Shown here in pieces: positions 1-62,457 of a DNA stretch of 64,000 bases (within the stretch, counting starts at the first letter, position 1; every line of letters begins with the position of its first letter). Source of the stretch: Selaginella tamariscina (taxonomy: Eukaryota > Streptophyta > Lycopodiopsida > Selaginellales > Selaginellaceae); assembly GCA_003024785.1 (NCBI GenBank), contig PUQB01000111.1:498926-562925 (forward strand), written 5' to 3'. The position numbers and the translations under genes are program-made. A model generated the notes under the pieces. The model was not told the origin of the DNA. It was given only the letters and a program-made list of their open reading frames with translations, and did not search any database.

Positions 1-45
1 CACTCAGAAGGTAACAGCGAAGAAGAATTATTAATGAATTGTTAG
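1..45 (+). pseudogene. C-terminal end of ParB/methyltransferase-like protein (partial)
   Basis: The first 45 bases encode HSEGNSEEELLMNC followed by a TAG stop. This matches the tail HSEGNSEEELIMN of the full gene ending at 58507. The rest lies off the left edge, so intactness cannot be judged. Confidence 0.7.
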
Positions 46-314
46 AGTGACGAATAGTTGTAAATGAGTGTAACATAAGGCATTTTTGTATATTTCGTTT
101 ATATTTATACAGAAAATAAATTCTCAAGGATTAAAGAAGCTTTTTGTTCAAACATGGGTCACACATTAACAAGGTAAATAATATACCTTGTTAATTATAA
201 GGCCAGCTAACTATCATTTTGCAGATGTAATGAAACAGTTGAGAATATGGATTTTCAGCAATGGCATGAGGTAAGAGAGGGGTTTGGCAAAAATTTCTTG
301 TGCCACATGTCAAA

Positions 315-1410
315 ATGACAGAGTTCATATAAGAAATGGATAATAATGCAGCTCAAAACATCCTTACTATGGGGACCACTTCAGTTTTTGCATCACCATT
401 TTTATTGCCTTTAGTTCCTACATCACTTTCTTCAGCACCTGAAATATCTGAATCTTATAAGGATGATGTACAAGTAAATGATAAAGGGATCGGCAACAAT
501 ATAGCATCAAAAGATAAATGTGAAAGGGACCAAACAAGTGATTTGCAAAGCATTCAAGAGGCAACGCTGCCCCTTATTACTCATGGTCATATTGTGTTGT
601 TGGATGTTAATGGTGTTTTGTTTCATCGACAAAGGTGCGAGGATAGAGAAAAAGAAATCAAATAAGGAAATTTCATTCGTTGTCATAGTAAATTTCAACA
701 TGATATTATTTTTTGTCGGGGTTGGACCATCTCTTTCAAAAAGCTTAAGGAGATGGGTGCACTTGTGGAGATTTGGTCATGCATGCAGTTTCACAACTTG
801 ACACCGCTGTTAAATTTGCTTAACAAACATTGTAGTGTTGCAAAAGAGGTGATTCATAAAGATTGGATTTTTAACTAGCGAATATGTTATAAACCTCTCG
901 AATTCTAGGATGTAAGAAAGGAAAGCAAGCCATACTTCTTTAAGAATGAAAGATTAATTGGGCTTCATTAGAAAATCAATCAGTTAAGGATTATGAAGAA
1001 TGCACATATCTTAGTGGTAAACAACTCTCCTCAAAAGGTTATACTTAATCAAACATTGCTTGTATCCATCCAATCACTTTCGACCCATATTCTGATATTA
1101 ATACCATGGATGAACTAGTGAACTACTTAAATATGTGCTTCAAAAATAGAATCTTGAAAACTTTTGTAAGCAATATCGACTATATAAAGCATACTCTAAC
1201 ACTTTTCTTTCTCGTAATTTTGAATTTTATAAATTAAAGGAGAGCAATCAGGCACTCTACAATATTATTATTAAAGAACATCTTGGTCTTTATGCACTTA
1301 TGTTCTTATCACAGCTTATGTATTAATAAGGATGGCAACTCTTAACTACATTCGTAAGAGTGTTAAGTGGTGGTAAACAACATAAAGATATTAACCAAAA
1401 TGATTCAATT
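315..1410 (+). pseudogene. FCP1/NLI-interacting-factor-like HAD phosphatase, decayed copy 1
   Basis: The first ATG at 315 is followed after a few codons by a stop; an open segment from 336 to 662 ends in HIVLLDVNGVLFHRQ. That string resembles the N-terminal catalytic motif of the FCP1-like HAD phosphatases (DxDG/N), here with Asn at the third position. Downstream, in other frames, come KLKEMGALVEIWSCMQFH and, near 990-1030, LRIMKNAHILVVNNSPQK, matching the second HAD acidic motif, which has lost its aspartates in this copy (NN for DD). Several frameshifts and stops interrupt it. HAD phosphatases of this type act on phosphoserine, for example on the RNA polymerase II tail. The gene lies inside the DNA element in both copies, so it is probably captured cargo, no longer functional here. 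Confidence 0.6.
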
Positions 1411-1694
1411 AATCCGGAGAGTGATGACATAACAAAATGAAGAAATTTCTTTATATGGTTAAGGAGAAAGTAATTACAAATAGATTAACAAGTTGATAAA
1501 GAAATGATTTTATTTGTAATTTAGGAATATTCTTTACTAAGTAAGGTTAATGAATTAATTTGTTAATTAATTTAATAATTAAGGCTTAATATTATATTTA
1601 TTAAATAATTAATTAATAATTAAAACTTAAGTATTAATTAGTAATTTATTTATATTCCCATTTTCATGTATCCCATTTTAGTTACAACGTGCAT

Positions 1695-12491: not shown

Positions 12492-13930
12492 TATGTTGAT
12501 GAGCCCTAAATGTTATAAAAAATAAGCTCACTTAGTGCATTTGAATATCTAGTAATGGTCCGGCCATGTGTTATTAGGTATTGTAAAAAACTCTAGGCAA
12601 AGCTAGCATCTTCATTTATAAAACTCTCCCTTAGTTTAATGTGTCTAGATTAGATTCATGGGTGGTTCTGGTGAGTTCAACCTTAGTTTGGCCACCTAGG
12701 GTTAGGGCTTAAGAGTGATAAATTATTATGTTAAACTCATCAATTATATTTATATTAAAATAAGATTCCTTGCTAACTCACTTTATAAAACATAGAACAA
12801 AGGGGGAGAGGAGGTCTCTATCACATATATTAAGTAGAATAAGTGTGGGGAAAGCATGCCAGAGATTGAGAGGTGTCTAGTTTCTTCATCCTTGCCAGTG
12901 TAACCCTAGCTTATGTCGTTAAGGCACACTTTTTGTGCCATTCTAACTTCCAACTAGTAGGGGCATGTCATACCTTGAGGGTAGCCTACCCTTATTGTTG
13001 GCGGATCCACACTATTATACCCAAGTACATCGCATCTAGGGGGTTTTCTAACTCCTTTCGTTTGGTAACCCGATTGCACACTTAAGAGGTCTTATTAGAG
13101 TAGGGTTCTCTTTACCAAGTTCTTGAGGGGTTCTAAAGTTGGCATTTGCAAGCCACGTTCGTGGCACAAAGTGTAACTTGAGTTTAAAGGGCTATGGCAA
13201 AATAGCAAAAAATAGTGTCACATGAACATGTGACATTAGGCTAAAGGACACATGATACAACGCCTGAGGCATGCCTTTTAGGGTTGTGACATGGATTTAA
13301 CATTGAGGCTAACAAGCAGGCGTGCTTGGGCTTGCATTAGGGTGCTAAGCCTTGGGCACCTACTAATGAGAGGTTAAATCTCATAATCGAGTGTACTAGC
13401 AAGCACACTTGGTTAGGGGTGTTCTTCCTGAGGGTTTATGAACATGTCAAGGAGTTGAACAACTTAAGTTCATTAGCACAAGCCCTATCATGAGGCACTC
13501 GCGTGGTAGGGTTCCCTAAACCTAGCCTTAGGGGTTTACTTAGCATAACATTTATGTCTGCCTCAGGTGTACACTCGTGTTAACATTCAGTACTAATCAT
13601 GGGGTGGGTGGGTCAGGGTACCCCTTGTCACCCTAAAGAGGTTGTATTCCTATATGAGGGTGATTCTTTAAGGGATAGGTCACGATGTCTTAGCTCTATC
13701 ATTAGGGTATGTGTAAGGCATGTTTCCTTAGTGAGGCTATGGCATAAGCCTATTTAGGTCCCCTAGTGTAGAATCTTAAGGTCCGGAGATAATCACTTTA
13801 GATGATTTAGGGTAGGCCCTAAATCTTGTGCCTATTTAGGCATTTGAGTTAAACTCTTATGATCATCTTAGAAGATTTAATATTACTCACACATGATGTT
13901 GATGCCACACTTATTAACCCTTCATGTTAA
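12492..13930. repeat. R-family repeat, right part (uninterrupted relative of the 15-kb element's target)
   Basis: This continues the R repeat after the retrotransposon. Its first 200 bases match 18820-19020 and 44340-44720. The segment around 13135-13200 corresponds to both flanks of the 15-kb element (45151-45176 and 60163-60210) joined together, so it shows what the empty site looked like. It holds no convincing gene. Confidence 0.75.
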
Positions 13931-33408: not shown

Positions 33409-34300
33409 ATGCGTGTGCAACTGAACAATCATTCTCAGTTGATGGCAGCATTCACAGTCCAGGGTACTCCTCCTATCATGTTGCAACCCCCGTGTCCGGC
33501 CGGATTTCTTTCGCGGAAATCCTGGAGATGATGTGTACCATTGGTTTGACCACTTCACTGTGGTTGCCACATATCATTCGTGGGACGGTGCTCAGTGTTT
33601 GCGCGAGTTTCCTACTTGTCTTCAAGGGACGGCGTTGCAGTGGTACAATGGTCTGGACGTTGCAACTCGTGGAGATTGGAATATTCTTCCAGAGATCTTC
33701 AAACGTGCATTTGGGCATGCGGACGACTGTGATGATGCTTTTCAGCAGTTGCATCGTATTCGTCAGGAGCCATCTGAGTCGGTGATGCAGTTTGGTGTTC
33801 GCTTTCGAAGCCTTTTGCTGCGTGCAGAACCTAACATGTCGGAACGCATCAAGTTAGGTATGTTGTGGCCAGCACTTCGTCAAGACCTTGTGGGGCTTGT
33901 GCATGCACTAGCTCCAGTGACTCTTGACGATGCTTTGAGGCTGGCACAACGATATGAGTCGTCACCTCTCCCACTTGCCTTCACGTGCTCGTTCCACTCC
34001 ATGTTGGGGATGGACCTGCTCCGATGGAGGTTGAGGCTGTTGCCGCTCGTGTACCAGCACAAGGTGGGCCCGTGGACGAGGACGTGGACGTGCAGTTCGT
34101 TGTTGGGCGTGTGATGAGGTTGGACACACGTATCGGCGCTGTCAACGGTTTCCCGATTGGCGTCCCCCATTTCCAGGATGGAGGCCATGGCGTCAACAAC
34201 GTCCGGTTGGTGCTGCTGCAGTGGAAGGTTGTGATGGTGGATCTTCCGGGAAACGACGAATCGCACGAGTAGAGGAGGGTCCTCGTGCGAATAAATTAGT
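33409..34300 (+). pseudogene. Gag of the short-LTR Gypsy element
   Basis: The largest open piece (33533-34114) includes TYHSWDGAQCLREFP, TALQWYNGLDVATRGDWNI, FKRAFGHADDCDDAF, RFRSLLLRAEPNMSERIK and VTLDDALRLAQRYESS, a typical Ty3/Gypsy gag with the W..G..A..W core. A zinc-knuckle segment (CWACDEVGHTYRRCQ-like, across shifts near 34090-34150) follows. Frameshifts at both ends of this piece. Confidence 0.8.
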
Positions 34301-37300: not shown

Positions 37301-37728
37301 ATCTGACGAGCATTCTTCCATTGGTTCGTGCGGAGTCAGCAGAACACTTGGGCCGCGTACAAGTAGGACAACAACAACGCTACAACTCGCATCATCGTCC
37401 TCCTACGGAGTACAAGGTTGATGAACTGGTGTTGGTTCGTTTTCCCAAGCTTATGGTACGTGGTTTAGCTAAGAGTCTCCTTCCTCAGTGGAAAGGACCG
37501 TATCGAGTGCTACGGCAAGTAGGCCACAGGTTTATGAGGTTCGGCACGACATTCAGCCCGATCCTCCAGATTGTACATGTGCAACGGTTGAAGCATTTTG
37601 TGCAACGGGAACAAGTTGTGCCGCCTACAGATCCACCAGTACCTCCTCCTGATGTTCTCCAGATCCGGGCCCGTCTACAAGAGAACCCTAACCAACTTAC
37701 ACCCTTCCGAGAGGAGGGGATGATGTAA
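34400..37728 (+). pseudogene. Pol polyprotein (protease-RT-RNase H-integrase), broken
   Basis: Protease: VDTGSSLSSVS near 34420 and LILGMDWLTRN near 34640. Reverse transcriptase: VYPLPHTADLLDRLGRSRWF near 35168, KLDLASGYWQVPM near 35232, MPFGLSNAPATFQRMMDEVL near 35333 and FIDDVLIHSDG near 35420 (the catalytic DD). RNase H: FILRVDASDIGLGAYMQE near 35850 and TTEKECLAAVWGFEKLHAYL near 35983. Integrase: HMGHRRVMEKLRRSFYWP near 36605, SDYLTRWVEV, RILSDNGPAF near 36957, HPQT near 37053, and the C-terminal LPQWKGPYRVLRQVG near 37480. At least ten frameshifts or stops. No clear chromodomain follows the integrase tail. Confidence 0.9.
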
Positions 37729-44330: not shown

Positions 44331-45176
44331 TACTTATTAAATTATATTGATAAGTTTATTTAGTGCACTTGGGATCTAATGATGGGCTGGCTAAGTGTCA
44401 TTAGATATTTACACAAATTATATATTGAATTAATCAATGCATTACATGCATAATATATGTATGTGTGTAACATCTGTGCATATTTAACTAACATATGTTA
44501 CATGTAAATACTACAATTTTTATTAATATTTGACATAAAAGTAAAATATACATGTCTATTATAAGAAATTTTGGATGAAGTTAGCACTTCATTTAAGAAA
44601 CTTACTTTTTATGTGTCCGAGTTGAATTATTAGTTACTTTCGATGAGTTCAACACATTGAATATAGATACAAACACCTCTAGGGTTGCCTTAACCCCACC
44701 ACTTAAACCCTTGGTAGTCTAAACTCACCAAGTATATTCCCATTAAAATGAGATTATGTGCTAACCCACTTTATAAAACATAAAAATAAAGGAGGGGCTC
44801 TATCACATATATTAAGTAATATATGTAGGTTCACGACTGAGCTCGTTATTCTTTATCGATGCAAACTTTAACTTGTGTCATTAAGGTACAATCCTTTGTT
44901 GTGCCGCCTCAACTTTTAAACATAAAGGTACGTCCCACCTTTGGGATAGCCCTACCTTTAACGTTGGCAAATCCATGTCTATAAAGTTTTATCAATGAGC
45001 ATGTTTTAAGGGTTATAGGTTGAGGCATGTTTCCAACCTCCTCATTCATGTCAAGTTAGGAGTAGCACTCACATGCACCTTTGTGTCCTTGTTCAACTAT
45101 AGATTAATTGACAAGTTCTCTTACTAAGTTCCTTAGGGTTCATAAAGGAGTTTTAAAGTTGACATTTGAGAGCCAT
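44331..45176. repeat. R-family repeat, left flank of the 15-kb element
   Basis: Aligns with 12492-13156, for example TTTAAAGTTGACATTTGAGA at 45151 against TAAAGTTGGCATTTGCAA near 13135. It is interrupted at 45176 by the DNA element and resumes at 60163. The 250 bases before it (44081-44330) are the AT-rich upstream region of the amidase gene. Confidence 0.75.
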
Positions 45177-45202
45177 ATGCAAGTTGTAACTAAAATGGGC
45201 AT
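45177..45202 (+). repeat. Left terminal inverted repeat
   Basis: Starts ATGCAAGTTGTAACTAAAAT and continues GGGCATG. It is the imperfect inverse of the right end at 60138-60162. GAATATTC-rich sequence (45272-45330) lies just inside, as it does near the right end (59968-59998). Confidence 0.8.
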
Positions 45203-45683
45203 GGCTATAGTCCCATTTCCTAATAATTAGCAATTTTAGCTATTTAATTAGCATTTTCTAATATTAAAGGAATATTCTTTAGAATATATGTTTGAAAAGA
45301 GAATATTCTTTAGAATATTCTATTTTGTATTCTACCCTTTAATAAATTATAGCATTCATTGAACAAAAATTAATAACATTATAAAAGTAGAATGTATTAA
45401 ATTATATAATATATTGCCTAATATAACAATTAAGGAAGAGCATAAGAGGTACATTATATAAATATTGATGTTGTTATTAAAATATTAATATTTAAATATA
45501 ACATTATTAATTAAAAATTTGTAGTAGTAATAATATATATATAAAATCCTATAATAATATAGTCAATCTTCCATATCATTTTTTAAATTTATATAGTTAA
45601 GTATACAATTTGGTACTATTATTAAAGAGTTTATAATAATTATGAATATTAAATATATGATATTTTATAATTTTGTAATTGCT

Positions 45684-48600
45684 TTAAGCTTCAGAAAACA
45701 TACATTCCCTTGCAGTTTTGTTAATCGTGACTTTATCAACGCTTCTTGACATCCACCCATATCGAATGGATTTAACATTTATAAAACATGCTGGGTCTTT
45801 TTGATTGGGAGACCATGTTTTCTCTAGGCATCCATTATATCTTTCGCTCTCCTTCTCGTGTCGCCTTTTTTGTGGTTTGAACCATGCAACCTTAACAATA
45901 CTATTTTTTGTGATTACTTCAGGTGTGTCGATAATTTGACCCATCCAAATAGGCTGATTATATGACGCATCTGGAGTAATGAGAACCATCATTAGTTTTT
46001 GAAGATCCTTGCAGCAATCAAAGTATGCTTTAGGTTTTTGGTTCCTTTGTCCAACAAAGTGTGGGGTTTGCACTTCCACATCACTACTGGCTTCTATGTC
46101 GTCTGTGCTCAGTGATGTCATTTCAATCTCCTCTCGCCACCTTGTTTTAGGCCAGAAAGGGTGTTGCAATTCTGTACTTGTGACAGTAGGCCCTTCCAAC
46201 TCTCGAACAACAGTCTCCCAATAGTTGACCACATGCTTATATAGTTCTGAGTAACCAGTTGCCTTATCAGAATTCTTTGGCATCGATTTTTGAACCCATG
46301 CCACATATTTTTTGATGCCATCAATAATAACCTCTTGTTCCTTGAGCTGGGCACTCAATGGAATAGGGTCTGGTTGTCCTTCTGGGAGAAGTGGCTTTCC
46401 ATCCTCTCCACTTTTGAAGAGCATTAAGCCCTCTTTCGGTAACCACTCCTGCTCTGATGGCCGTAACTTGTACTGCATAATAGGTATACCATCTCGTATG
46501 GAGAAAAAGAATTGTAGCGGCACAAGGTGACCAACTAAAGAATCACTCCCTTCTTTTATATACTCCTTGAGAAATTTTTTGAAGTCTGGCACCTCAGTCA
46601 CAAGCAAAGCACAACTTTTTTTGGAGATGCAATTTTCAAAAAGATTCATCATATGCGGTAAGGTAAGTGCACTTGTCCTTTTTGTAGAGTTGGAGACCTT
46701 GCTGAAGAACGCATCAATATCTTCATGAGTGTGACCAACCATAAGGAAACTGAGCGTGATTGTTTCAAACACACCTTTGGCAACAAGCATTGACAAGTAT
46801 GCTAGCACATATCTAGAAAATAAAAGTAAGTATGAGCTTGAGAAACCCTTAAGTAAAATGATTTACCTATTTTTGTTCTCGCCTGCACAATTATCCATCT
46901 GTAAAAGCAAATGACGAGGAAGCTTATTTGATGTTGAGGACACATGTACACTATTTGAGCTAGATCCCTCCACTGAACCTGAACTCTCAACAGGGCCATC
47001 TGTTTTTTGTGCAGGTTGCTGACAATGCCTCTCATATTCCCAAGTAGCCTCAAGTGCAGACGTGTTCATGAGAGCATTATGTAAAGGTTGAAGGTGTTGT
47101 TTCTTCACTTTGAGATCACTGATAGGACTTGTCTGTGAGTGGGCTTCAAGGTTTCTGAAACACATGGCTAACGACCCAATAGTGAAATTGGAGTCGCTAG
47201 ACCAATGTGGAAGTGAAAAGTGTCCATATGACTCACAACCGTGTCCATGTGTTAGCACACCTTCAATGAAATCGGAAGTTTCATGACATTTCCAAGGCAC
47301 TTTGGTGTTGCAAAGAGCTTTGGAATGCTGGTCTTTGAATGATCCATCTTGTATGGATCAAGCACAGGTACTCTGATGGGCGTGACACAGAAAGCATGCG
47401 GTGTGCATAGTACTGAGACCGACAAGTTTGTTGTGCAATCATGTGGGCCTCCATCTTCCTTTGAATGGTAGTGATCTCCACCAAGGTTTTTGCACAAGCC
47501 TCTGCAGCCTTCAATGATGTACAAGTGTCACACTTAGAAAAGCTAGAGTGTTTTGCAATCTCCACATCCTTAAAATGAGTATTCCATATGTTGTTGAAGG
47601 TACCAGTGCAGATTGCTTGGAGCCCCATCAAACTGAGGCACTTGTTCACATGTTCACACAGTTTCAATTGAGTGTAGATTGAAGGTAAAACCTTGAGATT
47701 TTCCCTGACCCCTGCATTTGTGGTTCGGCATTTGTGAGGCATCCTGTCTGCATTTGCTTCCACAAAAGCCTTGAGTATCTCTATGGCTGCCATGATGTGA
47801 GAGCGGGTTTTGACCAAGCCAGTGTTCCCATGAACTGAGGTTCGCGCTCCATCTAGCCACTCATCCCTCCGACGGTAGAACGTGGTCTTTGGGATCCCGT
47901 ATATACTGTACCAAGCTTTGAAGCAGATGGCCACCTTATTAAATACCATGGATGTACTCTGATAACCTGTGTCCGAGGCCATTCCATCAATACACCCAGT
48001 TAGTGCAGCATATACAAACTCATGCCTTTGCTTTTGGGTGAGCATACGAAAGACATGTCTACATTGGGTAATTTCATTCCGGTCTGCCATCTGACAACAC
48101 TTCTTCTTGCAACAGTCAATCGTGGAAATGCTCGTAACACTTTCGGAAGATGTAGGATCCATCTTTACCCTCTTGCTGAAACTTGCAGGGGAAGATCTAC
48201 AACCCATGAATCGCCTTTTTCTTACAATAGGACCAATGCAAGGAACCTCTTCAAATATGAGTTGTTCTTCCGGGTTGTTATTATTGAAATCCAACCCAGA
48301 ATATGTTGAACCATCTTGCCGTCTTAATTCAGATGTTCGCCACCTCACGAGGGATCCAGGATACAATGTGCCATTAGGTGAAACCTCTGTCACAACTACA
48401 CCCACGAAGTCGGACCCTAGTTTCTCTTCTGACACTGCTTCCATTGGATTTATAGCTGTGATGATGCCTCTTCCGACTTCAATCTCACGAAGAAAGAGAA
48501 TCACCTCATCCATTACAGCAGGCAAGCCATCATCTGGTAAACTCGTGCTACTATTTGTTTGTGACTCTGCATATTTTGTGTCAGCCTTGACTTCATCCAA

Positions 48601-48812
48601 ATTCCACAATACAGGAGAACCCTCCTCAAATTCCATTCCCAGAACCTCAACATGCTTGAAATGGTGTTCACCCATACGTACACACAAGATCCTTGGGAAA
48701 TATTGTGACATGATGCATTATTATCTCGAACTTCCACAGTTCCAGTGCCAACTATCTCGTTGTTCCGAAGAAGACATACTTTATCTCCAGTATTAAACAT
48801 ATTGTCCTGCAC
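45684..48812 (-). CDS. DDE/RNase-H-like protein of the DNA element (candidate transposase)
   Basis: Read from 48800 (MFNTGDKVCLLRNNEIVGTG) to a stop at 45684, about 1000 residues across frameshifts near 48712, 47400 and 47290 and a 54-bp intron at 46813-46866 (minus). In order: an N-terminal region with EIVGTGTVE; a Cys/Lys-rich stretch CCKKKCCQ; a helix-turn-helix-like YGIPKTTFYRRRDEWLDG; a Cys pair in FSKCDTCTSLK; then DPYKMDHSK, LLLQMDNCAGENKNR, LSFLMVGHTHEDIDAFFSK, and a long C-terminal region to 45684. The pattern D..DN..ENKN..GHTHxDID suits an RNase-H fold with acidic catalytic residues, as in the DUF7869-type proteins of plants, oomycetes and animals, often suspected to be transposases. 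The position inside inverted repeats supports this role. Catalysis and family are inference. Confidence 0.75.
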
Positions 48813-48950
48813 ATAAATAATTGTATTATTTATGATATCTGTTTATGCAATATTTTTAAGAAATCTGAATTACGGTTACTTAATAATATGCATATGCAAT
48901 AATACATAATTATGTTTAGAGATAATATCTCATGTTTGATTAATACAACT

Positions 48951-49824
48951 GATGGGCGGGATTAATCCCGCCCACGAATCCCTCCGACGAGGAACGGTCG
49001 GCGGGATTAATCCCGCCGCCGACTCAACCCCTTCGGAGAGAGTCGGCGGGATTAATCCCGCCTTGGACTCCCTCCGACAAGGAAGAGCCGGCGGGATTAA
49101 TCCCGCCTCTTCCTCCTCGGGGGGAGTCCGGCGGGATTAATCCCGCCGACTCTCTCCGACGAGGAAGGGAGTCCGGCGGGATTAATCCCGCCGCCGACTC
49201 AACCCCTTCGGAGAGAGTCGGCGGGATTAATCCCGCCTTGGACTCCCTCCGACAAGGAAGAGCCGGCGGGATTAATCCCGCCGCTCTTCCTCCTCGGGGG
49301 GAGTCCGGCGGGATTAATCCCGCCGACTCATCCTCGCCGGAGAGAGTCGGCGGGATTAATCCCGCCGGACTCCCTTCCTCGTCGGAGGAAGAGGCGGCGG
49401 GATTAATCCCGCCGGCTCTTCCTTGTCGGAGGGAGTCCAAGGCGGGATTAATCCCGCCCACAATTCTTACGACGGGGAATGGGTGGCGGGATTAAACCCG
49501 CACATAACTCTCTCCAAAACTATGATTTCAAAGAGATCTCGGGATAAATCCTGTCCCCAAATCTTTAAAACAGGGAAGTGGTGGCGAGATTAATCCCGCC
49601 ACCCCTTCCCTGCCTCCTAAAATGGTTGGCGGGATTAATCCCGCCGACAACTCTTTCTAATAAATTCTGGTAACTCTTCATCAGTTGAGAAGGTTATCGA
49701 CGGGATTAATCCCGCCACTCTTTTTCAGTGGCGGAGAAGCATTGCCCGGGAGATGGTGGCGGGATTAATCCCGCCACTTCTTCAAAGAGGCGAAAAAGAA
49801 ATGGCCGGATTAATCCCGCCGCCC
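48951..49824. repeat. Palindrome array 1: about 18 copies of GGCGGGATTAATCCCGCC
   Basis: Eighteen copies, mostly exact, spaced about 40-47 bases in the left two thirds and wider to the right. It lies directly upstream of the start of the DDE-like gene. The spacers are also ordered: the block from 49020 to about 49195 is repeated from 49196 on, and the unit at 49063 is the exact inverse of the unit at 49394-49457, so the array is a palindrome built from palindromes. Open frames reading GINPA or AGLIPP here on both strands are translations of the repeat, not genes. The rightmost copies carry single changes. Confidence 0.95.
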
Positions 49825-52576
49825 GGTTAACCTAGAATATTAAGTTAAAAGGATATTTAAACGTGATAAATCCCTAACGGAATATATTATAATCCTAATG
49901 CATTTCTAAACCCCTAAATTGTAATTTTAAGAGAGAATGTAAGAGAGTGAATCTTAATAAGTATTTTTAAATTTGTTTATAATACTTACTTGTAAACAGC
50001 ACTGAAGGCGCCGTGCTTTCCTATAAAGAATAGCACCCAATTTAATCTCGCTCCTGAGATGATCACTATGAAGAAAAAAGAAGATCTAAAGAGTGAAAAA
50101 TACAGAAATGAAGAAACCCTTGCCGGAGAAAGAACCAGATCTGAATTTGAGTGGGAAATTAAATGCATTTTCAAATTTACATGTCAGACCGACAATACAT
50201 ATGTCAGAAATTCAAATTTTTTAAAAAGAACAGAAAATAAAATTTAAGATGAGTTGACACAAATATCCGACACTCTGACATATATACTCTCCAGTTCCAA
50301 TGAGTATTTTAAAATTGCATTTAATGTTATTCAAGTGATTCAAGCTGTTTAATATTACGAAATTTTAGACTATATTCTACATTCTTAGTATTCAAGTATA
50401 TTTATATTATATATATATATATAAATATATACTTATACAATAAATAAATTGATATATTATTATGTATCATTTAAAATATATTCATAGTCTGTTTATTATT
50501 ATTATTTTCTTAATTACTCGAGTATTTAGTTTTCATTTCCTAGTATCAATGGGATATTCTTTAATATTTTATTAATATTTGAAGAATATTCTAATATTAA
50601 ACCTGATTATCATAATTAAATTAGTCTTGTTCTTAATTATTGCAGTAATTATTCTACATTTGTATATATTAATGGGATTTTCTCAATTAATTTGTTATTA
50701 TTTCAAGAATATTCATGTGTTAAACCTTATTATCAATATTAAATTAATACACACTATGAACATATTTTAAATTATACATAATAATACATCATTTTATCTA
50801 ATATATAGTCATATATAGTTTTAATAATATATATATTAATATCATTTCCTTAATTACTTGAGTAATTAATCTTCTTTATATTAATGGGATATTCTTTATT
50901 ATTTTCTTATTATTCCAAGAATATTCCAATATTAAACATGATTATGATAATTAATTTAGTTAATTATTTGAGTACTTAATTTACATTTGTATATATTAAT
51001 GGGATTTTCTCAATTAATTTCTTATTATTTCAAGAATATTTCAATGTTAAACCTTTTTATCAATATTAAATTAATATATATTATTAAAACTATATATGGC
51101 TATATATTAGATAAAATCATATATTATTATGTATAATTTAAAATATGTTCCTAGTGTGTTTATTAATTTTATTTTCTTAATTATTCGATGTTTGTTTTGC
51201 ACACATATATAAACACAATCATAAATTTACACACGCATTACAAGAACTTACAAAAACACATATGCACACACATGCACAACCCTAAACCAAACTGAAGAAA
51301 TAGGTTGCTTCTTTATTGAAAACATCATGTTCAACGCATGTATGATATATGTACTCAATCTGTGTGACTGTATGTAACACATTGAATTTACATGTGTAAT
51401 ATTTATATTAAGCTTGTTGGGAGCAAACCCTAAACCCTAAACCCTAAACCCTAATATGTAACACAATGAATTTACTCATGTAATATGTATGTATGTCTGT
51501 GTGTATACACGTGTGCATGTATATATGTGTACTCTGTATGTATATATGTGTACTTTCTGTCTTCTCTCATACATACACACCATGCATGATCCATGTTAAT
51601 ATGTACTGTCTCTCTTCTCTCAAACATACACACCATGCATGATCTATAATATGTACTCGGTCTCTCTAATATTATGTACTAATATGTATGTATGTCTGTG
51701 TGTATAATACACACCATGCATGATCCATATTAATATGTACTGTCTCTCTTCTCTCATATACTATGTATGTATATCTGTGTATAATATGTGTAAGTATATA
51801 TGTGTACTAATATATGCAATGTGTACAAAAATAATTTTTCAACACTCTCTCTTCTCTCATACATACACACCATGCATGATCCATCCTAAATCCAAAACCC
51901 TAAACCCTAAACCCATGTAATATGTGTGTATGTCTGTGTGTATACACGTGTGTATGTATATATTATGTGTATTAATATATGCAATGTGTATGTATGTATT
52001 GATACACATGAAACTTTAACACTCTCATGGACACACACATGTTAAATCCCTGCATGATTTATATTTTTGAGGTGTATGTGATACACCCACGCACACGCAC
52101 GCGCTAATAATATAATGAAAGAATATTCGTTTAGGGCGAATCTATATTTTATTCTTTTTAGGGTTTAAGTATATTCTCAGAAGGAATATTCTATTAGGGT
52201 TGATATATATATTTAATTCCTTTAGGGTTTAGGTATATTCTTAGGGTTTCAAGAGGCGGCGGCTGTGAAATCGGCGGCGGCGGCTGTGCACACAGGTGAG
52301 ATCTGTGTGTGTGTGTGTGTGTATGTATGTATATATGTATAGGAGTGTGCGTATAATTTTATTTATTAGTTTTATCTCTCGCACACACACGCACACTCCT
52401 GTGTATGTATATGTGTGTGTGGGTGTGTGTTTGTTTATCTGTATGATTTTATTTGTTTCGCTCACACACGCATACACACGATATACATATACACATATAT
52501 ATATATACCTATATACATATATACATACATATATTATGTGTACCAGTATCTGTAAATTTTTTTTTATTGATCTTGC

Positions 52577-52652
<76 letters not shown>

Positions 52653-52714
52653 GTGTACCAGTATCTGTAAATTTTTTTTTATTGATCTATCTCTCCCACA
52701 CACACGCGCACTGC

Positions 52715-52805
<91 letters not shown>

Positions 52806-53505
52806 ATGCATATTAACAAATAGTATACAACACTAGTTTATATATATGCTTATATATTCATATGGGTTATATATCTATATACACACATATTATATGTGTG
52901 TGTTTTCTGTATAATTTATTTATTTATTTATTAGTTTTATCTCTCGCACACACACGCACACTCCTGTGTATGTATATGTGTGTGTGTGTGTGTTTGTTTA
53001 TCTGTATGATTTTATTTGTTTCGCTCACACACGCATACACACAATATACATATACACATATATATATACCTATATACATATATACATACATACAACACTA
53101 GTTTATATATATGCTTATATATTCACAGACTCTCTCTCTTTCTCTATAGATTATATATCTATATACACACATATATATGTGTGTGTTTATATGTATAATT
53201 TTATTTATTTATTAGTTTTATCTTTCGCACACACACGCACACTCCTGTGTATATATATATGTGTGTGTGTGTGTTTGTTTATCTGTATGATTTTATTTGT
53301 TTCGCTCACACGCATACACACGATATACATATACACACATATATATACCTATGTACACACATATATTAGGTGTACCAGTACTGTATAATTTATTTATTTA
53401 TCTATCTCTTGCACACACACGTACACTCCTATACATACATACATACATACATATATATACACACACATATATATATGTGTGTGTTTTTATCTCGCTAAGC
53501 CCCTC
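49825..53505. other. Central spacer of the DNA element: AT-rich, telomere-like runs and microsatellites
   Basis: No gene recognised. 50400-51200 is AT-rich with repeated GGGATATTCTTTA/AATATTCTAATATTAAAC motifs. (CCCTAAA) runs lie at 51426-51454 and about 51896-51914. A unit containing CTTCTCTCATACATACACAC recurs at about 51560, 51615, 51747 and 51851. Long (CA)n(TA)n tracts are at 52575-52648 and 52718-52803, and a larger unit with GATTTTATTTGTTTCGCTCA recurs at about 52445, 53008 and 53290. A short segment GGCGGCGGCTGTG lies near 52255-52285. Confidence 0.7.
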
Positions 53506-53506
53506 G

Positions 53507-55075
53507 AGCGGCGGGATTAATCCCGCCGCTATAGGTTTATAGCCTCGGCGGCGGGATTAATCCGCCGCTATATGTTGGGGCCATGGCGGCGGGATTAATC
53601 CCGCTGCCGAGGCCCTTCAGGCATGGGTGAGCGGCGGGATTAATCCCGCCGCCGAGGCCCTTCACGCAGGCTATGGCGGTGGGATTAATCCCGCCGCTCT
53701 ACGACAAACGAAGAGCGGCGGGATTAATCCCGCCGCCCATGGCCTGCGTGAGGAACCTCGGCGGTGGGATTAATCCCGCGCTCATCCATGCCCTGTGCGG
53801 AATGCGGCGGGATTTATCTCGCCGGCAATGGCCTGTGTGAAGGTTCTAATGGCGGGATTAATCCCGCCGGATTCCGCGCAGGGCATTTACAGGGAATGGG
53901 CGGCGGTATTAATCCCGCTGCCGAGGCCCTCACGCAGGCCATGGGCGGCGGGATTAATCCCGCCGCTCTTCGGTTTGTCGTACAGCGGCAGGATTAATCC
54001 CGCCGCCCAGGGAATTCACGCAGGACATGAACGCCGGGATTAATCCGGCCCACGCTCATGCCCTTCGCGGGATTAATCCCGCCCCACCCATCCCTGTTCA
54101 AAAATGCCGCAGCCAATATATATGTGTGAGCGCATGATTTACGAGAGGGCGGCGGGATTAGCCTCCGAACTTCATTACCCGGTGGCGAGATTAATCTCCG
54201 AACCTTCATTACCCCATTGGTATGTTGAATCAATCCCGCCTAACTCTGTCTGAGACGGAGAAGGTTTACAAAATACCAATGGAGGGAACCGAGAAGGGTG
54301 GTGGGATTAATTTCACCATCCTTACATGGTGGGCGGGATTAATCCCCCGCGTACACATGCCCTGCGCGGAATCGGGCGGGATTTATCCCGCCGCCATTGG
54401 CCTGCCTGAAGGGCCTAGGCGGCGGGATTAATCCCGCAAGATTTCGCACAGGGCATTGGCGTTCGGCGGGATTAATCCCGCCGACTAAGGCCCGAGTGAA
54501 GGGCCTGGGAGGCGGGATTAATCCCGCCGAACGCCAATGCCCTGTGCGAAATCGGGCGGGATTAATCCCGCCGCCATTGGCCTTCCTGAAGTGCCTAGGC
54601 GGCGGATTAATCCCGCCCGATTCCGCGCAGGGAATTGGCGTCCGGCGGGATTAATCCCGCCGCATAGGGATCGAGTGAAGGCCCTGGGCGGCGGGATTAA
54701 TCCCGCCGAGTCTTCAATGCCTGTTGGAGAAATGAATCTCCGCCACCCTTCCTTTTTCCTCCATTGGTGAGTCGGACCAATCCCAAACGTTTCTGTCTAA
54801 GACGTAGAAGGTTTACAACATACCAATGGAGGACTGGGAAGGGTGGCGAGATTCATTTAACCATATCACTTACATGGTGGGCGAGATTAATCCCGCCCTT
54901 TCTGGAGTCACTGAAGGGGTGTGAGAAATAAATCCTGCCCAGTTCTCTCTGAGACCGAGAAGGGTGGCAAGATTAATTCCGCACTCCCGTTCAAGGCCTC
55001 CAGAAAGGTGGCGAGATTAATCCCGCCCACTCTTTCAGGAGGCATTGAAGGGGTGGCGAGATTAATCCCGCCGCA
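53507..55075. repeat. Palindrome array 2: about 29 copies of GGCGGGATTAATCCCGCC
   Basis: About 29 copies with an average spacing near 43 bases up to 54710, then sparser. It sits upstream of the ParB/methyltransferase-like gene. Many copies are exact; others differ by one or two bases, such as GGCGGGATTTATCTCGCC at 53806. Spacers share words such as GGCCTGCGTGA, CCCTGCGCGGAAT and GGCCCTTCACGCAGG, in both orientations, and these words differ from the spacers of array 1. Copies to the right of 54840 are mostly of the form GGCGAGATTAATCCCGCC. Confidence 0.95.
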
Positions 55076-55186
55076 CCTTCCATGTGAATATATATGTGTA
55101 TTAGTATATATAAGTTGCATATCTCATTTTATTTACTTTTATCATCTTATCATAATATTTCGAGTAAAAGCTAGGAATCTATGTAA

Positions 55187-55273
55187 AACTGTCCAGAGCT
55201 CACATTTGTGGTGGTTCTAAAACGAAATGTTATCTTTCTTTTGCACTAACACAAATGTGAGCTTCGGACAGTT
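55187..55273. repeat. Hairpin upstream of the ParB/MTase-like gene
   Basis: AACTGTCCAGAGCTCACATT at 55187 continuing to 55210 is the near-perfect inverse of 55250-55273, with a 39-base loop. It lies between palindrome array 2 and the first exon of the plus-strand gene, so it could form a stem in the 5' transcript or mark a small insertion. Confidence 0.7.
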
Positions 55274-55377
55274 AATTACGTCTACTTCTCTCTGTGTATT
55301 ATTTTTGTATATTCGGGTTTATACAAGTGTGTGTGCGTTTTTATATAATTTATATTTATAGTGTATTATTTTGCAGA

Positions 55378-58300
55378 AGGACGATTTGATCAAACAAGGA
55401 GATCGAGTCATTAGTATGGAGTCGTCGTCAAATTCTGGGTAAGAATTAAAATAAAATCTGTTATACTCGGATACTTGAACTAATCATTTTTGTATTCAGA
55501 TGTGGAATTGAAGTGACATTAAAGACAAGAGCAGGAGAAGAGATGGGCAGGGGGATTCTGGAATCAACTTGGCCATATTTTAAGATAAATGGGAAGCGCA
55601 TTGGAGCAACCATGGTTGCTGTCAAATTAACCTCTGTCACATCTCATGGACAAGCAAAACAATGGAAAGTAGATTCGCTAGTCAAGCACCCGAAAGCAGG
55701 CTGCGAACCCAGATTGGACGATGCTCGACAGATATGCCTTGTTCCATCCAATGTCACGTTCTCGGATCCAGAGGTCGTCAGTTACAACATTAATCTCGGG
55801 TGGTTTTGTCGACTTGTGGATAATGATGTTCACGTGTTCACTAATGATGTTGACCTTGGAGTTCTTCTTCAACTCAACGAAAGCCCATCTATGGAGGGGA
55901 TCCATCTGGATGTCTACTTCGAAGATCTTCAGACTCATCGAGTAGGTGTATTGTCAGGAGATATTGTTCACAATACAGAAAATCAGCAAGTGGAGCAATC
56001 TTCCCTCTTGACATTGAAGAAGAACACAGCGACATCATAAGGGAGATTGAGAAGGTGGCTCGGTCTCAGGTTCTCTACAGATCACGTTCAATTTGCTTAG
56101 GAAGCTTCGGGAGCTGGAGGAGTGTGCCGAGAACACTAGAACAGCTGCAGTCGGGGATCACACATGTTGATTCGGATCGCAAAAGAAAATCATCAATCGT
56201 TTTGTCAGCTGCACCTGTGGCATCTCATGCTGCAATAAGTCACAAGGAAATGATGTTGGATGATAAGATTTATCCTTGTAGGGTTAAATATTGCAGCGTC
56301 AACCCAAACTTCAATTACAGGCCACTCAACCAGGAACGTGTAGCTGAGCTCATGGAGAAGATGAAGGACGACAATTCTTATACCGTTCCACATAATGCTG
56401 TTTTGTGTCCATACTATGAAAGAAGGAAGGGTGCTGACAAAGTCTGGATCACAACACCAGAACAACTCATGAAGATTCAGACGGAGAATAAAAGATCTAT
56501 CAAGTACTACATCATTAGTGGCCAGCACACAATAACGGCAGCCCAACGACTTCTCGAGAACACAACAAAGGAACGATGGCAACAAAACTTTCCGAGCATA
56601 CCCGTGAGAAGCTGACAAAAAGATCGGCGTTTTTAGCTAATCTCACAATCGAGCAGTACCATAAGTTATCGGCGGAATGGGACGCTGCCGACACCAACCA
56701 CTACAACAGCAAAATATGGGAGAAGTTTAAACACACGCGAGCCGTGTGGGAATCTCTTCAGCGACCACAAAGAGCTACCGCAGGGAATACACAATCTGCG
56801 GAATACCGGGTAAGCAAATTGTTTGGGCGGGATTTATCTCGCCGGTATATTAATCTGTCTTTTTCCTCAGAGAGTTGAAGAAATTGCAGCAGTTGATTTT
56901 GCCCAGGTGGGCGGGAAGGAAACATCATTTCTGATGATGTTGATTTCTTGCCCCGAAGATAGGATCTTTGCCAAATGGTTGGGGATTATGGAATCCTTTT
57001 CAAAAGGAACACTGAAGAAGAAGCAGACAAGTGAAGGGGAGCCCTCAGAAAAGTCTGCAAAGAAACCCAGTAAGACGCCGAAGGCTAAGTCTGTTCAATC
57101 TACAAAGGATGTAGACAACGATTTCAAGCTCACATGGTTGAAGCCTTTAAATGGAACAACGATGGAGGAGATGGAAGTCTTGGCTGATTTGGTGATCGAT
57201 GGCAAACTACAAATTAATAACAGCAGCCCAACCTCTCCTTTTCATCTCAAGGCAATGGAGTTGAAGACGGTCAGGCATTTCAAGGAGTGGTTGGGAATAC
57301 ACTGCCACAAACTGGGTTGGACCTCGACTTCAACATATGAAGAGGTCAGCAAATATTTGCATGTGACGAACGATGATATGCTTGTCGAATGGGTGAACCA
57401 ATCGGAAGATCTAGGCAAGAATCTATTGCACGCCAACGCCAAAAAGGAGAACATTGGGATGACGCCTTCTCTTATGGCAGTCCTTCAGCAGCGGAGAACC
57501 GAATTGAACCTTATAAAGGAGGATGCTACGAATCACGACAAGCCCTACAGATGTTTGTTGTTAGATTCGGAGACTTTATGGGGTAACATCACTGCTTGTA
57601 GGAAACCGTTTCAATTGTTCGTGATGGATCGGCGGGTGTCAAAAAATCTTTCGACAGATAGGGCACTAGAGGATCTGGTGGAGAAACTTAGCCGTGCAAG
57701 CATATACATAGAAGGTATTTATTATTGAATTCATGCTTGCGCTCTTCACTGATACCTACTTTTTCAGGTATTTATTTCTTGATTCTTGCTCATGTCACCG
57801 ATACTTTTGCCTTCGCCTTCGCCAAGAAGAATAGACATCGTTGGACAGGATTTTATATGAATGCTAATCCCAAGTGCATTGATACTGTTGTTCACTTGGT
57901 TGTTAGGAATGCGCCAAACAATTTCAAGCTTCCAAATGACTGGCCAGGCATCTGTTTGCACTCCAACGGCCCTGAACCTCCATCCGATACACCGATAGGT
58001 ATGAGTGACGTATTCGGCAATGTACGTTATCCAAACATTACAAGTCAAGCGGCACGGAGCATCGTCAACTTGATCAGGGGTCCTCACAGTGATGCGTGGG
58101 TTTTTGACTACTGCACTAGGGGTCCGTCTTGAAGGAGTGTTACCTTCGGCATACATGTGTGTTTGCCGTTGAGAAGGATAAGACCATGGTTGAGGACCTG
58201 AACAAGTGGATAGATTGGGTCTCAACTGAGTACCCCAACGATTCCATAAAGGCGTATTTGAGAAAGTTCCCTCCAGATAAGTGCGATAGCTCTGAAGGTG

Positions 58301-58507
58301 AATCTGGTTCAATCTCGGAGTCTGAGAACGAACATCAATCAGATATTAGACCGGAAGTTATCTCGAGGAGTACAGAACATTCGCACACTCCAGGACCCAT
58401 GGAAACACATAGAAGATGCAGAAGATCTTGAACCATCTCACAAGCGGCTTAGACCTTCTTCGCCTCATTCAGAAGGTAATAGCGAAGAAGAATTGATAAT
58501 GAATTGA
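55378..58507 (+). CDS. ParB-like plus DNA-methyltransferase-like protein of the DNA element
   Basis: A coding exon can be followed from about 55378 (in frame with ATG 55416, MESSSNSG), with GT-AG introns at 55439-55499, 56811-56870 and 57715-57767 (53-61 bp), to a stop at 58507. Domains: a unique N-terminal region (TLKTRAGEEMGRG, GVLLQLNESP); a coiled-coil-like RKLRELEECAENTR near 56100; a ParB-like domain near 56270-56575 (NPNFNYRPLNQERVAELMEK ... YYIISGQHTITAAQRLL); a Lys-rich linker; and a C-terminal region that looks like a class-beta DNA methyltransferase, with FQLFVMDRRV at the place of the DPPY motif and VFDYCTRG..VLKECYL then VFAVEKD at the SAM-binding motif. Both catalytic motifs look degenerate. 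ParB-methylase fusions are known from prokaryotes and phages. Frameshifts occur near 55990, 56095, 56170, 56570, 58120 (G run) and 58360. It is divergent from the DDE-like gene across the palindrome arrays. Confidence 0.65.
56826..56843. repeat. Degenerate 18-bp palindrome copy inside an intron
   Basis: GGCGGGATTTATCTCGCC, differing in two bases from the array consensus, lies in the 60-bp intron at 56811-56870 of the ParB/methyltransferase-like gene, outside both arrays. Confidence 0.85.
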
Positions 58508-58780
58508 TAGAGTGATGAATAGTTGTAAATGAGTGTAACATAAGGCATTTTTGTATATTTCTTTTATATTTGTACAGAAAATAAATTCTCAAGGATTAAT
58601 GAAGCTTTTAGTTCAAACATGGGTCACACATTAACAAGGTAAATAATATACCTTGATAATTTTAAGGTCAGCTAATTATCATTTTGCAGATGTAATGAAA
58701 TAATTGAGAACATGGATTTTCAGCATTGCCATGAGGTAAGAGAGGGGTTTGGCGACAATTTCTTGTGCCACATGTCAGAA

Positions 58781-59808
58781 TGACAGAGTTCATGCAGGAA
58801 ATGGATAATAATGCAGCTCAAAACATCGTTACCATGGGGGCCACTTCAGTTTTTGCATCATTATTTTTATTGGCTTCAGTTCCGAAATCAATTTCTTCAG
58901 CGCATGCAATATCTGAATCTTGTAAGGATGATGTACAATTAAATGATGAAGGGATAGCAACGAAATAGTGGCAACGGATAAATGTGAAAGGGAGCAAACA
59001 AGTGATTTGCAAAGTATTCAAGAGGCAACGCTATCTCACGTTACTCATGGCCATATTGTGTTGTTGGATGTCAATATGGTAAATTTCGATATGATATTAT
59101 TTTTCGTCCAGGGTTGATCGTCTCTTTCAAAAGCTTAAGGAGATGGGTGCGCTTGTGGGGATTTGGTCATGCATGTAGATTCATAACTTAACACCGCTGT
59201 TGAATTTACTTAAGAAACATTGTAGTGTTGCAGAAGAGGTGATTCGTAAAGATTGGATTTTTGACCAGCGAATATGTTATAAACCTCCGAATTTCACAAT
59301 ATAAGAAAGGAAAGCAAGCCGTACTTCTTCAAGAATGAAAGAATAATTGGGACTCATGGGGATCAGTCGCTTAAGGATAATGAAGAATGCACAGATGTTA
59401 GTAGTAGACGACTCTCCTCAGAAGGCTATGCTCAACCAAAACATTGCTTGTATTCATCCAATCACTTTCGATCCATATTCTGATATCGATATCATGGATG
59501 AGCTAGTGAACTACTTGGATACGTGCCTCAGAAAGAAGAATCTCGAAAATTTTTGTGAGCCAGTATCCACCGTATCATACATTTCCTGAAGCTTTTCTTT
59601 CTCGTGATATTGAATTTTTAAAATGAAGGATAGCAACCGGGCGCTTTATAATATTATTCTTAAGGAACGTCAGTTTTTAGATGAGCCTTTATGCAGACCT
59701 TCTCTTATCACATCTTATGTATTAACAAGGATGGCAACTCCCAATTGCATTCGTGAAGTGTTAAGTGGTGGCAACAACATCAAGATATTGACCAAAATGA
59801 TTGATTAA
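58781..59808 (+). pseudogene. FCP1/NLI-interacting-factor-like HAD phosphatase, decayed copy 2
   Basis: The open start at 58781 (MTEFMQEMDNNAAQN) parallels the copy at 315. HIVLLDVN near 59051 should lead into the first HAD motif, but about 75 bases including GVLFHRQ are deleted. The downstream part is better kept than in copy 1: LRIMKNAQMLVVDDSPQKAM near 59368 has the DD pair, followed by ELVNYLDTCLRKKN, and after a shift ALYNIILKERQFLDEPLCRP to a stop at 59808. Loss of the nucleophile region means it cannot be a working phosphatase. It lies between the ParB/methyltransferase-like gene and the right end of the element. Confidence 0.65.
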
Positions 59809-60137
59809 TCCGGAGAGTGATGATTTAGACAAAATGAAAAGATTTCTTTGTATGATAGAAAGAAAGTATTTATAAAAAAGTTAACATGTTGATAAGAAAA
59901 TAATTTCATTTGTAATTATGTTTGATAGTATTTCTTCATTATTGTAAACTATTTTTAGAATAATATGAATATTCTAAGATATTTAGGAATATTCCTTACT
60001 AAGTAAGGTTATTGAAGGATTAATTAATTAATTAATTAATATTTAAGGCTTAATTACATATTAATTAAATGATTAATTAATAATTAAAACTTAAGTATTA
60101 ATTAGTAATTTATTTTATATTCCCATTTTCACGTATC

Positions 60138-60162
60138 ATGCCACTTTAGTTACAACGTGCAT
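60138..60162 (-). repeat. Right terminal inverted repeat
   Basis: CATGCCACTTTAGTTACAAC followed by GTGCAT, ending at 60162, the imperfect inverse of 45177-45202. The same end closes the copy at 1-1694. CCAT follows at 60163-60166. Confidence 0.8.
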
Positions 60163-60879
60163 CCATGTTCCTAACACTTTGTGTAACTCTTGAATCTAAG
60201 GCACTATGGCATGATAACCCACATTTTGGGAAATAATGTCACATGAGTAGGCTAGATGGCACAATGCCTAAGGCACACCTTTAGGGTTGTTTCATGGGGT
60301 TAACACCGAGGGGTTAAATACTCTAGTAAGCAAGCATACTTATGTTCACATCATGGTGTCATTGACTAAAGGGAGGTTAAGTCTCATAACTAAGCGTATT
60401 ATTAACACACTTGGCTAGGGGGTGTTCTCCTTAGAATCCAAGGGTTGAACAACCTAAGCTCATTAGTAAAAACCCTTTTGTGAGGCACTTGTGGAGTTGA
60501 ATACTTAAGGTTATCTAAAGTTAGCCTTAGGAAGTTTACTTAACAAAACACTCATGTTCACTTATGGCGCACACTTGTGTCCTCATTAAGTACTAGTCTA
60601 AGATCTAAGGTATGACTTGGCCACTCAACCCTTAGGGTTAGTCATGGTCTCTATCACAAGGGTATGTGCAATGCATGTCTTCTTAGTGGGGTTAGGGCAT
60701 GAGCATGTCTAGGTCTTCTAGATTATTCTCTATAAAGTTCAGGGGACAATCAAGGAGGACCTAAGTCTTGTGCCTATTGAGCATTTGAGTCAAGCTTTTG
60801 GGGTTGTCTTGGAAGACTTATTATTATTCACATAGAGTGTTGACACTAATTGGCCACTTGATAGTCAAGTTTTGTCATG
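60163..60879. repeat. R-family repeat, right flank of the 15-kb element
   Basis: Aligns with 13153-13930, for example GGGTTGAACAACCTAAGCTC at 60443 with the matching stretch near 13456. It is cut on the right by a minus-strand Gypsy LTR. Confidence 0.75.
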
Positions 60880-61029: not shown

Positions 61030-61858
61030 TCATTCCTCTCAGAAGGATGAAAGTTATTAGGGTTCCTTGGTAAATAAGCCAAGATCTGGAGGAATATTAG
61101 GAGGAGGCACCAGTGGATCTGTAGGCAGCACAACTTGTTCATGACCCTGTTGCATGAAATGCTTTAAGTATTCATGCATAGCCTCAAGTATTCATGTTGG
61201 AAAATGAATCAAACAAACTCATCCACTTTGTACTCCACAAGTGGATGATGATGAGAGTTATAGCACCATTGTTATCCCACTTGTATGCGGCCCAAGTGTT
61301 CTATAGGAAAATGAATCAACACCAACTCATCCACTTTGTACTCCACATGTGAATGATGATGAGAGTTATAGCACCATTGTTATCCCACTTGTATGCAGCC
61401 CAAGTGTTCTATAGACTTCACTTGGACTACTTGTATGCGGCCCAAGTGTTCTATAGACTTCACTTGGACTAACAAGAGTTATAGCACCACTTGTATGCGG
61501 CCCAAGTGTTCTATAGACTTCACTTGGACTAACAGAGAGTTATAGCACCATTGTTATCCCACTTGTATGGGCCCAAGTGTTCTAATGATGATGAGAGTTA
61601 TAGCACCATTGTTATCCCACTTGTATGCGGCCCAAGTGTTCTAATGATGATGAGAGTTATAGCACCATTGTTATCCCACTTGTATGCAGCCCAAGTGTTC
61701 TATAGACTTCACTTGGACTAAGAGAGAGTTATAGCACCATTGTTATCCACTTGTATGCGGCCAGTGTTCTAATGATGATGAGAGTTTAGCACCATTGTTA
61801 TCCACTTGTATGCGGCCCAAGTGTTCTATAGACTTCACTTGGACTACGAATGCAAGTA
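61030..61858 (-). repeat. Minisatellite grown from an integrase C-terminus relic
   Basis: Read on the minus strand, 61030-61200 matches the end of the Gypsy pol (coding for a proline-rich tail before the LTR), and 61200-61300 matches EHLGRVQVGQQ..YNSHH..EYKVDELVLV of the element at 37340-37440. From 61257 to 61858 a block of about 60 bases, including CACTTGTATGCGGCCCAAGT, is repeated roughly nine times with variants, some units carrying an extra TAGACTTCACTTGGACTA. The repeat is thus an amplified piece of a transposon gene. Confidence 0.85.
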
Positions 61859-61860
61859 GG

Positions 61861-62457
61861 TGTCATGACCCGATACAGGAACAGGATACGACATATAGGA
61901 TTCAGCTACAGGATATGCGATACAGGATTCGGCCCGCAGGATATTCTCACAGGATATGGCCACAGGATATTCCCGCAGGATATTCTCACAGGATATGCCT
62001 ACAGGATATTCCCGCAGGATATTCCTACAGGATATTTCCATAGGATAAGGATGACCAATTTTGGCTAGTGACTAGATTAGGCTCATGACCAGATTAGTTT
62101 GGAGTTGTGAGCATAAAAGCTCCGACCTAATTGTTGTACAATCAGTTACTATCAACACCAGTCTTTCTACGATCATTCTTGTTCTTGTCTGTTCTTGTCT
62201 TGTCTTGCTCCTTTGCCTCTTGCTTTTGTCTCGCTCCTAGATCCTGTCCTATTCCTATCTCGCTCCTGGATCCTGTCCTGTTCCTATCTTGCTCCTAGAT
62301 CCAGTCTTGTTCCTGTCCTACTCCTGGATCCTGTCCTGCGTTCTTGTCTTGCTCCTGAGTTCCTAGTTCCTGTCTTGTTTCCTATCTTACTCCTGAGTCA
62401 AGCCTTCCTACTCTTGGAATCCTGCTCACTTCCTGTTTCCTGGATCGTGGCTTAACA
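61861..62457 (+). repeat. 5' LTR
   Basis: Contains degenerate CAGGATATTCC/CAGGATATGCC repeats in its first 180 bases, GAGTTGTGAGCATAAAAGCT (TATA-like) near 62102, and a TCCTGTCCT-type pyrimidine tract in its last 290 bases. TG..CA ends. It is followed by GTTTGATAGTAACTAC, the expected primer-binding position. Confidence 0.85.

What the first reader, a model, noticed from the sequence alone, without database searches (positions are those of the whole stretch)
45177..60162. A 15-kb DNA element with both ends, target duplication and empty site visible, of unclear superfamily
Sequence: inverted ends of about 25 bp, CCAT on both sides, flanks that join to give the R repeat seen uninterrupted at 13135-13200, and a second right end at 1-1694 in a different context. 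Knowledge: 4-bp duplications occur in a few superfamilies such as Sola. Inference: the combination of DDE-like, ParB/methyltransferase-like and phosphatase-like genes with two palindrome arrays does not match any transposon architecture I know.
Basis: partly seen in the sequence, partly recalled or inferred. Interest (0 to 1): 0.95.

Follow-up and report, generated by a model that had tools for sequence, protein, structure and literature searches.

The report
Giant recently active Sola-like plant transposon
A 15-kb jumping gene that has recently spread through this genome carries, besides the enzyme that moves it, a second gene that looks like a DNA-binding regulator and two arrays of near-identical palindromes that could be its docking sites, which offers a testable case of how a large mobile element may control or protect itself.

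Summary
45177-60162 is a DNA transposon with ~26-bp inverted ends and a CCAT duplication; a diverged repeat copy at 13.1 kb shows the uninserted state. The 300.7-Mb source assembly has 857 exact 37-bp left ends (reversed control 0). 100 listed ends contain 21 facing left/right pairs (median 14.6 kb). 12 of 23 inspected insertions keep a perfect 4-bp duplication; 11 of 13 copies read lie within 1% of their majority, so the spread is recent. The copy at 1-1694 is an old relative. The minus-strand gene is a DUF7869 protein with a predicted RNase-H-like DDE/D core. Duplication, ends and size fit Sola. A 21.5-kb Sola1 element with an opposite-strand ParB-methyltransferase gene is published from Ectocarpus (PMC12477816), so the architecture has a precedent. 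Gene 2 here shows purifying selection but no database relative; its ParB likeness rests on motifs and one sub-threshold hit, and no methylase PP motif was found. Palindrome arrays (cores 88-97% alike, spacers 32-35%, ~45-bp period) lie upstream of both genes; an NIF-type phosphatase gene is also carried. Best reading: a Sola-like transposon whose accessory protein binds its own promoter arrays, comparable to VANC anti-silencing. Binding is inferred, not shown.

The parts
45173..45176 (.). target duplication CCAT, left
45177..45203 (+). left terminal inverted repeat
   Evidence: same end in other contexts; 857 exact 37-bp copies in the genome
45684..48800 (-). transposase gene, DUF7869 (PF25273); 54-bp intron 46813-46866; in this copy about three frame breaks (~48.66, ~47.35, ~47.24 kb) against the majority of 7 copies, where both exons are open
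   Evidence: Pfam; frames; majority ORFs; coordinates; relatives; fold of relative P0001
48955..49820 (.). left palindrome array: 18 sites of GGCGGGATTAATCCCGCC within 4 mismatches, mostly 45 bp apart, 155-1020 bp upstream of the transposase start
49823..53509 (.). AT- and microsatellite-rich middle between the arrays
53510..55072 (.). right palindrome array: 28 sites within 4 mismatches, most often 44-46 bp apart, 471-2033 bp upstream of the gene 2 start
55543..58504 (+). gene 2: exons about 55543-56809, 56871-57716, 57821-58504 (boundaries from the majority reading); ParB-like segment near 56240-56600, weak methyltransferase-like segment near the end; frame breaks in this copy
   Evidence: frames; majority reading; longer frames in other copies; exon coordinates; selection; sub-threshold ParB
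56826..56843 (.). palindrome (2 mismatches) inside intron 1 of gene 2; one at the corresponding place in the old copy
58720..59872 (+). gene 3: NLI-interacting-factor-like (FCP1/SCP type) phosphatase, broken in this copy, longer frames in others; start not fixed
60137..60162 (-). right terminal inverted repeat
60163..60166 (.). target duplication CCAT, right
13080..13300 (.). related repeat without the insertion (empty-site paralogue, CCAC at the site)
1..1694 (+). right part (gene 3 and right end) of an old relative, copy 2; the rest lies left of the window (L060)

Best explanation
It is a giant cut-and-paste DNA transposon of the Sola kind, closest to Sola1. Shown: defined inverted ends, 4-bp target duplications, hundreds of dispersed copies with near-identical sampled members, and a DUF7869 protein whose predicted fold has an RNase-H-like DDE/D core. 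Inferred: this transposase cuts at the ends and inserts with a 4-bp stagger. The divergently transcribed gene 2 makes an accessory protein, probably a ParB-like domain with a degenerate methyltransferase-like tail, that binds the palindrome arrays upstream of the transposase gene and of its own gene. By doing so it keeps the element's promoters active or free of silencing, as VANC proteins do for VANDAL elements. The phosphatase gene is a further helper or passenger.
Confidence: 0.6

Rival explanations
1. Self-methylating accessory: gene 2 is an active ParB-methyltransferase that binds the arrays and writes N4-methylcytosine or N6-methyladenine on its own element, as suggested for the algal proteins.
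For: Published proposal for the Ectocarpus Sola1-1 protein (PMC12477816, passage); a C-terminal segment resembles motif I of beta-class methylases by eye (motif recalled).
Against: No [DNS]PP[YWF] motif in the majority gene 2 or in the three forward frames of the gene 2/gene 3 region; no methylase family hit; last exon weakly constrained.
Confidence: 0.12
2. The palindromes are binding sites of the transposase or of a host factor (enhancer or insulator), and gene 2 does something else.
For: Arrays sit upstream of both genes; they are GC-rich with CpG observed/expected 1.04-1.11 against 0.41-0.73 in the genes (the motif itself forces part of this). Repeated sites for a transposon protein are known in En/Spm (recalled).
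Against: They lie at least 3.8 kb from the left and 5.1 kb from the right end, not subterminal, which argues against a role in end pairing. All 47 window sites are inside the element, and the 100 genome places listed, all on one contig, lie in clusters, which speaks against a host factor with scattered sites; the other ~27,000 places were not inspected.
Confidence: 0.3
3. The arrays are selfish or structural DNA (cruciforms, hairpin RNA) without a dedicated binding protein.
For: Arrays form long inverted repeats (I2, I4, I6); tandem arrays can homogenise.
Against: Homogenisation would keep spacers as alike as cores, but spacers are near random while cores are almost identical.
Confidence: 0.15
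4. A DNA transposon of a new superfamily that only resembles Sola in its 4-bp duplication.
For: No direct comparison with Sola was possible; no paper of the library names DUF7869.
Against: Size, ends, duplication and the opposite-strand accessory gene agree with published Sola and Sola1.
Confidence: 0.15

Closest known systems
Sola1-1_Ec32, Ectocarpus (PMC12477816; passages read)
   Same: Giant Sola1 DNA transposon; accessory gene on the strand opposite to the transposase with ParB-like and methyltransferase-like parts.
   Different: 21.5 kb, brown alga, methyltransferase predicted active, no array mentioned in the passages read. Here mostly 14-15 kb, probably a land plant, catalytic motif not found, palindrome arrays, NIF phosphatase gene. 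Sequences not compared.
Sola2 elements of dictyostelids (PMC3627910; passages read)
   Same: 4-bp duplications, short TIR (12-21 bp), transposase of ~900 aa, extra genes carried.
   Different: Extra gene is Fanzor1; not compared at sequence level.
VANDAL/VANC anti-silencing system, Arabidopsis (PMC5735166; passages read)
   Same: Element-encoded accessory gene plus element-specific short motifs in tandem repeats upstream of VANA and in introns.
   Different: Mutator-type element (recalled), motif YAGTATTAY, no sign of a related protein; function shown there, only inferred here.

Membership tests
Sola superfamily | 4-bp target duplication | tested here: met
   12 of 23 pairs perfect; by my estimate chance gives about 1 in 100-250 per pair
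Sola superfamily | terminal inverted repeats within the reported 11-1124 bp | tested here: met
   ~26 bp
Sola superfamily | DDD-type RNase-H-like transposase | tested here: inconclusive
   RNase-H-like fold and conserved D, D, E/D cluster; third catalytic residue (E366, D367 or D369) not resolved; Foldseek E above 0.001
Sola superfamily | sequence relationship to a reference Sola transposase | not testable with these tools
   No Sola sequence at hand; Repbase not available
[quoted passage not shown]
   same order in the old copy
Sola1 with ParB-methyltransferase accessory gene | ParB-like domain | tested here: inconclusive
   PHROG ParB E 0.093; no Pfam hit to ParB; model unusable
Sola1 with ParB-methyltransferase accessory gene | N4/N6 methyltransferase with catalytic PP[YWF] motif | tested here: not met
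   motif absent from the majority reading
NIF/FCP1-SCP phosphatase (gene 3) | PF03031 above gathering score | tested here: met
   49 bits against 21.8, majority reading
VANC-type anti-silencing | accessory protein that binds the arrays and removes silencing | not testable with these tools
   needs binding and methylation data

The most novel reading that the evidence does not exclude
The element carries a eukaryotic ParB-like loading system: gene 2 protein loads at parS-like palindrome arrays next to both promoters, spreads along the element, and with a catalytically dead methyltransferase-like reader excludes host silencing, which allowed hundreds of ~15-kb copies to spread recently.
Probability: 0.2. 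Interest if true: 0.88.

Novelty: new variant of a known kind. Interest (0 to 1): 0.62.

Why it matters
ParB-methyltransferase genes in giant algal transposons are described, but the passages I read name no target sites. Here a recently amplified element pairs a similar-looking gene with a very regular palindrome array upstream of both genes, so binding, promoter control and resistance to silencing can be tested directly. It also suggests that proteins of the uncharacterised domain DUF7869 are DDE/D transposases.

Tried and rejected
Short non-autonomous copies: no facing pair under 10 kb among the 100 listed ends, but one ~240-bp derivative with ATAT on both sides lies in the old copy. Gene 2 was searched against Pfam, NCBIfam, PHROGs, PDB, phages and the 5.8-billion-protein set without a significant relative; weak unrelated names such as LuxS, DUF658 and PH_BUD3_C also appeared near threshold, so the ParB hit at 0.093 is no stronger than chance by itself. 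The majority reading used held a short mis-framed stretch at the end of the first gene 2 part (about 12-16 residues), seen later; searches used the mended frame. AF2 of the ParB-like exon (5 rows) gave pLDDT 34.9 and was not searched further. PDB by sequence: nothing for transposase relative P0003 and nothing of note for gene 3. Papers: no paper names DUF7869; none held all of transposon, ParB, DNA methyltransferase and 'eukaryotic transposons'; Selaginella with Sola, Repbase and superfamilies gave one review; the Ectocarpus paper turned up. Academ was considered for its 3-4-bp duplications (recalled); not pursued, as no XPG-like hit came up in the scans of the main ORFs. Molecular dating was left out: the copies show many indels that may be sequencing errors. 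The host was not identified; the assembly size recalls Selaginella tamariscina (recall only), and a land plant is inferred from the P450 fragment and Ty3-type gag.
Full report
Observation. The inverted repeat is about 26 bp, ATGCAmGTTGTAACTAAA..., and its 12-bp core occurs three times in the window: both ends of this element and the right end of copy 2.

Genome test. The window lies in a 300,702,823-bp assembly of 1391 contigs. The 224-bp left end gave 767 first-look candidates, of which 40 were scored; the answer lists 41 matches, 40 of them full length and 100% identical. The 17-bp end pattern occurs 2769 times and its reversed control 0 times; the exact 37-bp left end 857 times, control 0. 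The 100 places listed contain 21 adjacent facing pairs, all left-with-right, median 14.6 kb; the other 58 ends are unpaired by this rule. Thirteen copies were read end to end: the window's; two of four followed from the left-end list (the other two had no exact right end in the fetched stretch); and ten of the 21 pairs. Ten more pairs were read at their flanks only and one was not fetched. Perfect 4-bp duplications: CCAT, ATGT, TTAT, AAGA, TCTA, AAGG (6 of 13) and TATC, AACG, CTAT, TTAT, TGGT, ACAT (6 of 10). Against my estimate of one in 100-250 by chance, 12 of 23 settles that insertion duplicates 4 bp. The 11 without may be recombinants, assembly joins or decayed sites; I did not test which.

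Age. Over 6.1-7.0 kb of aligned coding sequence, 11 of the 13 copies differ by 0.09-0.88% from the majority, with a median pairwise difference of 0.56%; two are 2.1-2.7% away. The two copies found through the 100% left-end list were preselected for similarity; the ten others were chosen only for exact 17-bp ends. The copy at 1-1694 continues to the left (L060) and is an old member, 82-89% identical in its longer matches, with the same order of parts. Its gene 3 part finds 2445 first-look candidates, of which 40 were scored; one is 98% and the other long rows are 82-87% identical. So the family is old and has recently multiplied again. Counts are lower bounds; with 857 left ends, or 27,128 palindromes at about 21 exact per copy, several per cent of the assembly is a fair inference.

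Gene 2. It runs divergently from the transposase. Longer frames joining its parts were seen in copies L027 and L035. Changes shared by at least two of three older copies against the young majority give pN/pS 0.29, 0.09 and 0.20 for its first three parts, comparable to the transposase (0.21 and 0.13), but 0.80 with one stop for the last part. In the oldest copy the values are 0.36-0.57 for gene 2 with stops, as expected for a copy that also decayed after insertion. I read this as a selected protein gene with a relaxed end. The segment VNPNFNYRPLNQERVAELMEKM...VLCPYY...YYIISGQHTITAAQRLL resembles the ParB N-terminal fold by eye; the only computed support is a PHROG ParB match at E 0.093, and unrelated families reach similar values. 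The C-terminal segment resembles motif I of beta-class methylases by eye; no [DNS]PP[YWF] motif was found. No relative was found in the protein set or in phages.

Gene 3 matches the NLI-interacting-factor phosphatase family. In the old copy it is as recognisable as gene 2, so it is a long-standing part, though its constraint is weak (0.49).

Arrays. All 47 sites within four mismatches of GGCGGGATTAATCCCGCC in the window lie in the element: 18 upstream of the transposase, 28 upstream of gene 2, one in gene 2's intron. Cores are 97% and 88% alike, spacers 35% and 32%; sites were picked by likeness to the core (at least 78%), which inflates the first figures but does not explain the gap. Pooled over the 13 copies, 216 of 418 intervals under 400 bp are 44-46 bp. 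The old copy keeps 20 sites within four mismatches, 18 of them with the ATTAAT centre, and many changes of the CG-to-TG/CA kind, as expected after methylation (inference). Genome-wide there are 27,128 exact sites, control 0; the 100 listed, all on contig C1, fall in clusters, several paired 3-4 kb apart and some single. One cluster without an exact listed end (L058/L059) proved to be a diverged copy of the element.

Mechanism. Shown: an element with defined ends and a 4-bp duplication, recent spread, a conserved transposase and a constrained accessory gene. Inferred: gene 2 protein binds the arrays and acts on the two promoters. The nearest functional precedent is VANC, whose motifs are likewise tandemly repeated upstream of VANA and in introns (PMC5735166, passages). 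The nearest architectural precedent is Sola1-1 of Ectocarpus (PMC12477816, passages), where the authors suggest that such proteins bind and modify their own transposon.

Verdict. A real, recently active, Sola-like giant transposon; its architecture is known in algae, here in a probable land plant, with palindrome arrays that make the accessory protein's target testable.

Noticed in passing
L060:5567-5805 (G000 C125): About 240-bp derivative holding both element ends and no middle, with ATAT on each side, inside old copy 2: a MITE-like non-autonomous form.
   Followed up: partly
L060:23-144 and 1928-2307: Stretches 99% and 97% identical to the young left and right ends lie inside old copy 2, so young copies insert into older ones.
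   Followed up: no
window 26338-27093: Cytochrome P450 fragment, PF00067 E 4e-22.
   Followed up: no
window 33533-34114: Retrotransposon gag, PF03732 E 4e-10.
   Followed up: no
window 61213-61874 and 37336-37424: Short tandem units with CACTTGTATGCGGCCCAAGTG-like inverted repeats, on opposite strands at two places.
   Followed up: no
coding parts of L018/019, L028/029, L058/059: Synonymous divergence from the young majority differs by region (transposase 0.02-0.06, first three parts of gene 2 0.04-0.13, its last part 0.02-0.06, gene 3 0.01-0.03), which suggests exchange between subfamilies.
   Followed up: partly
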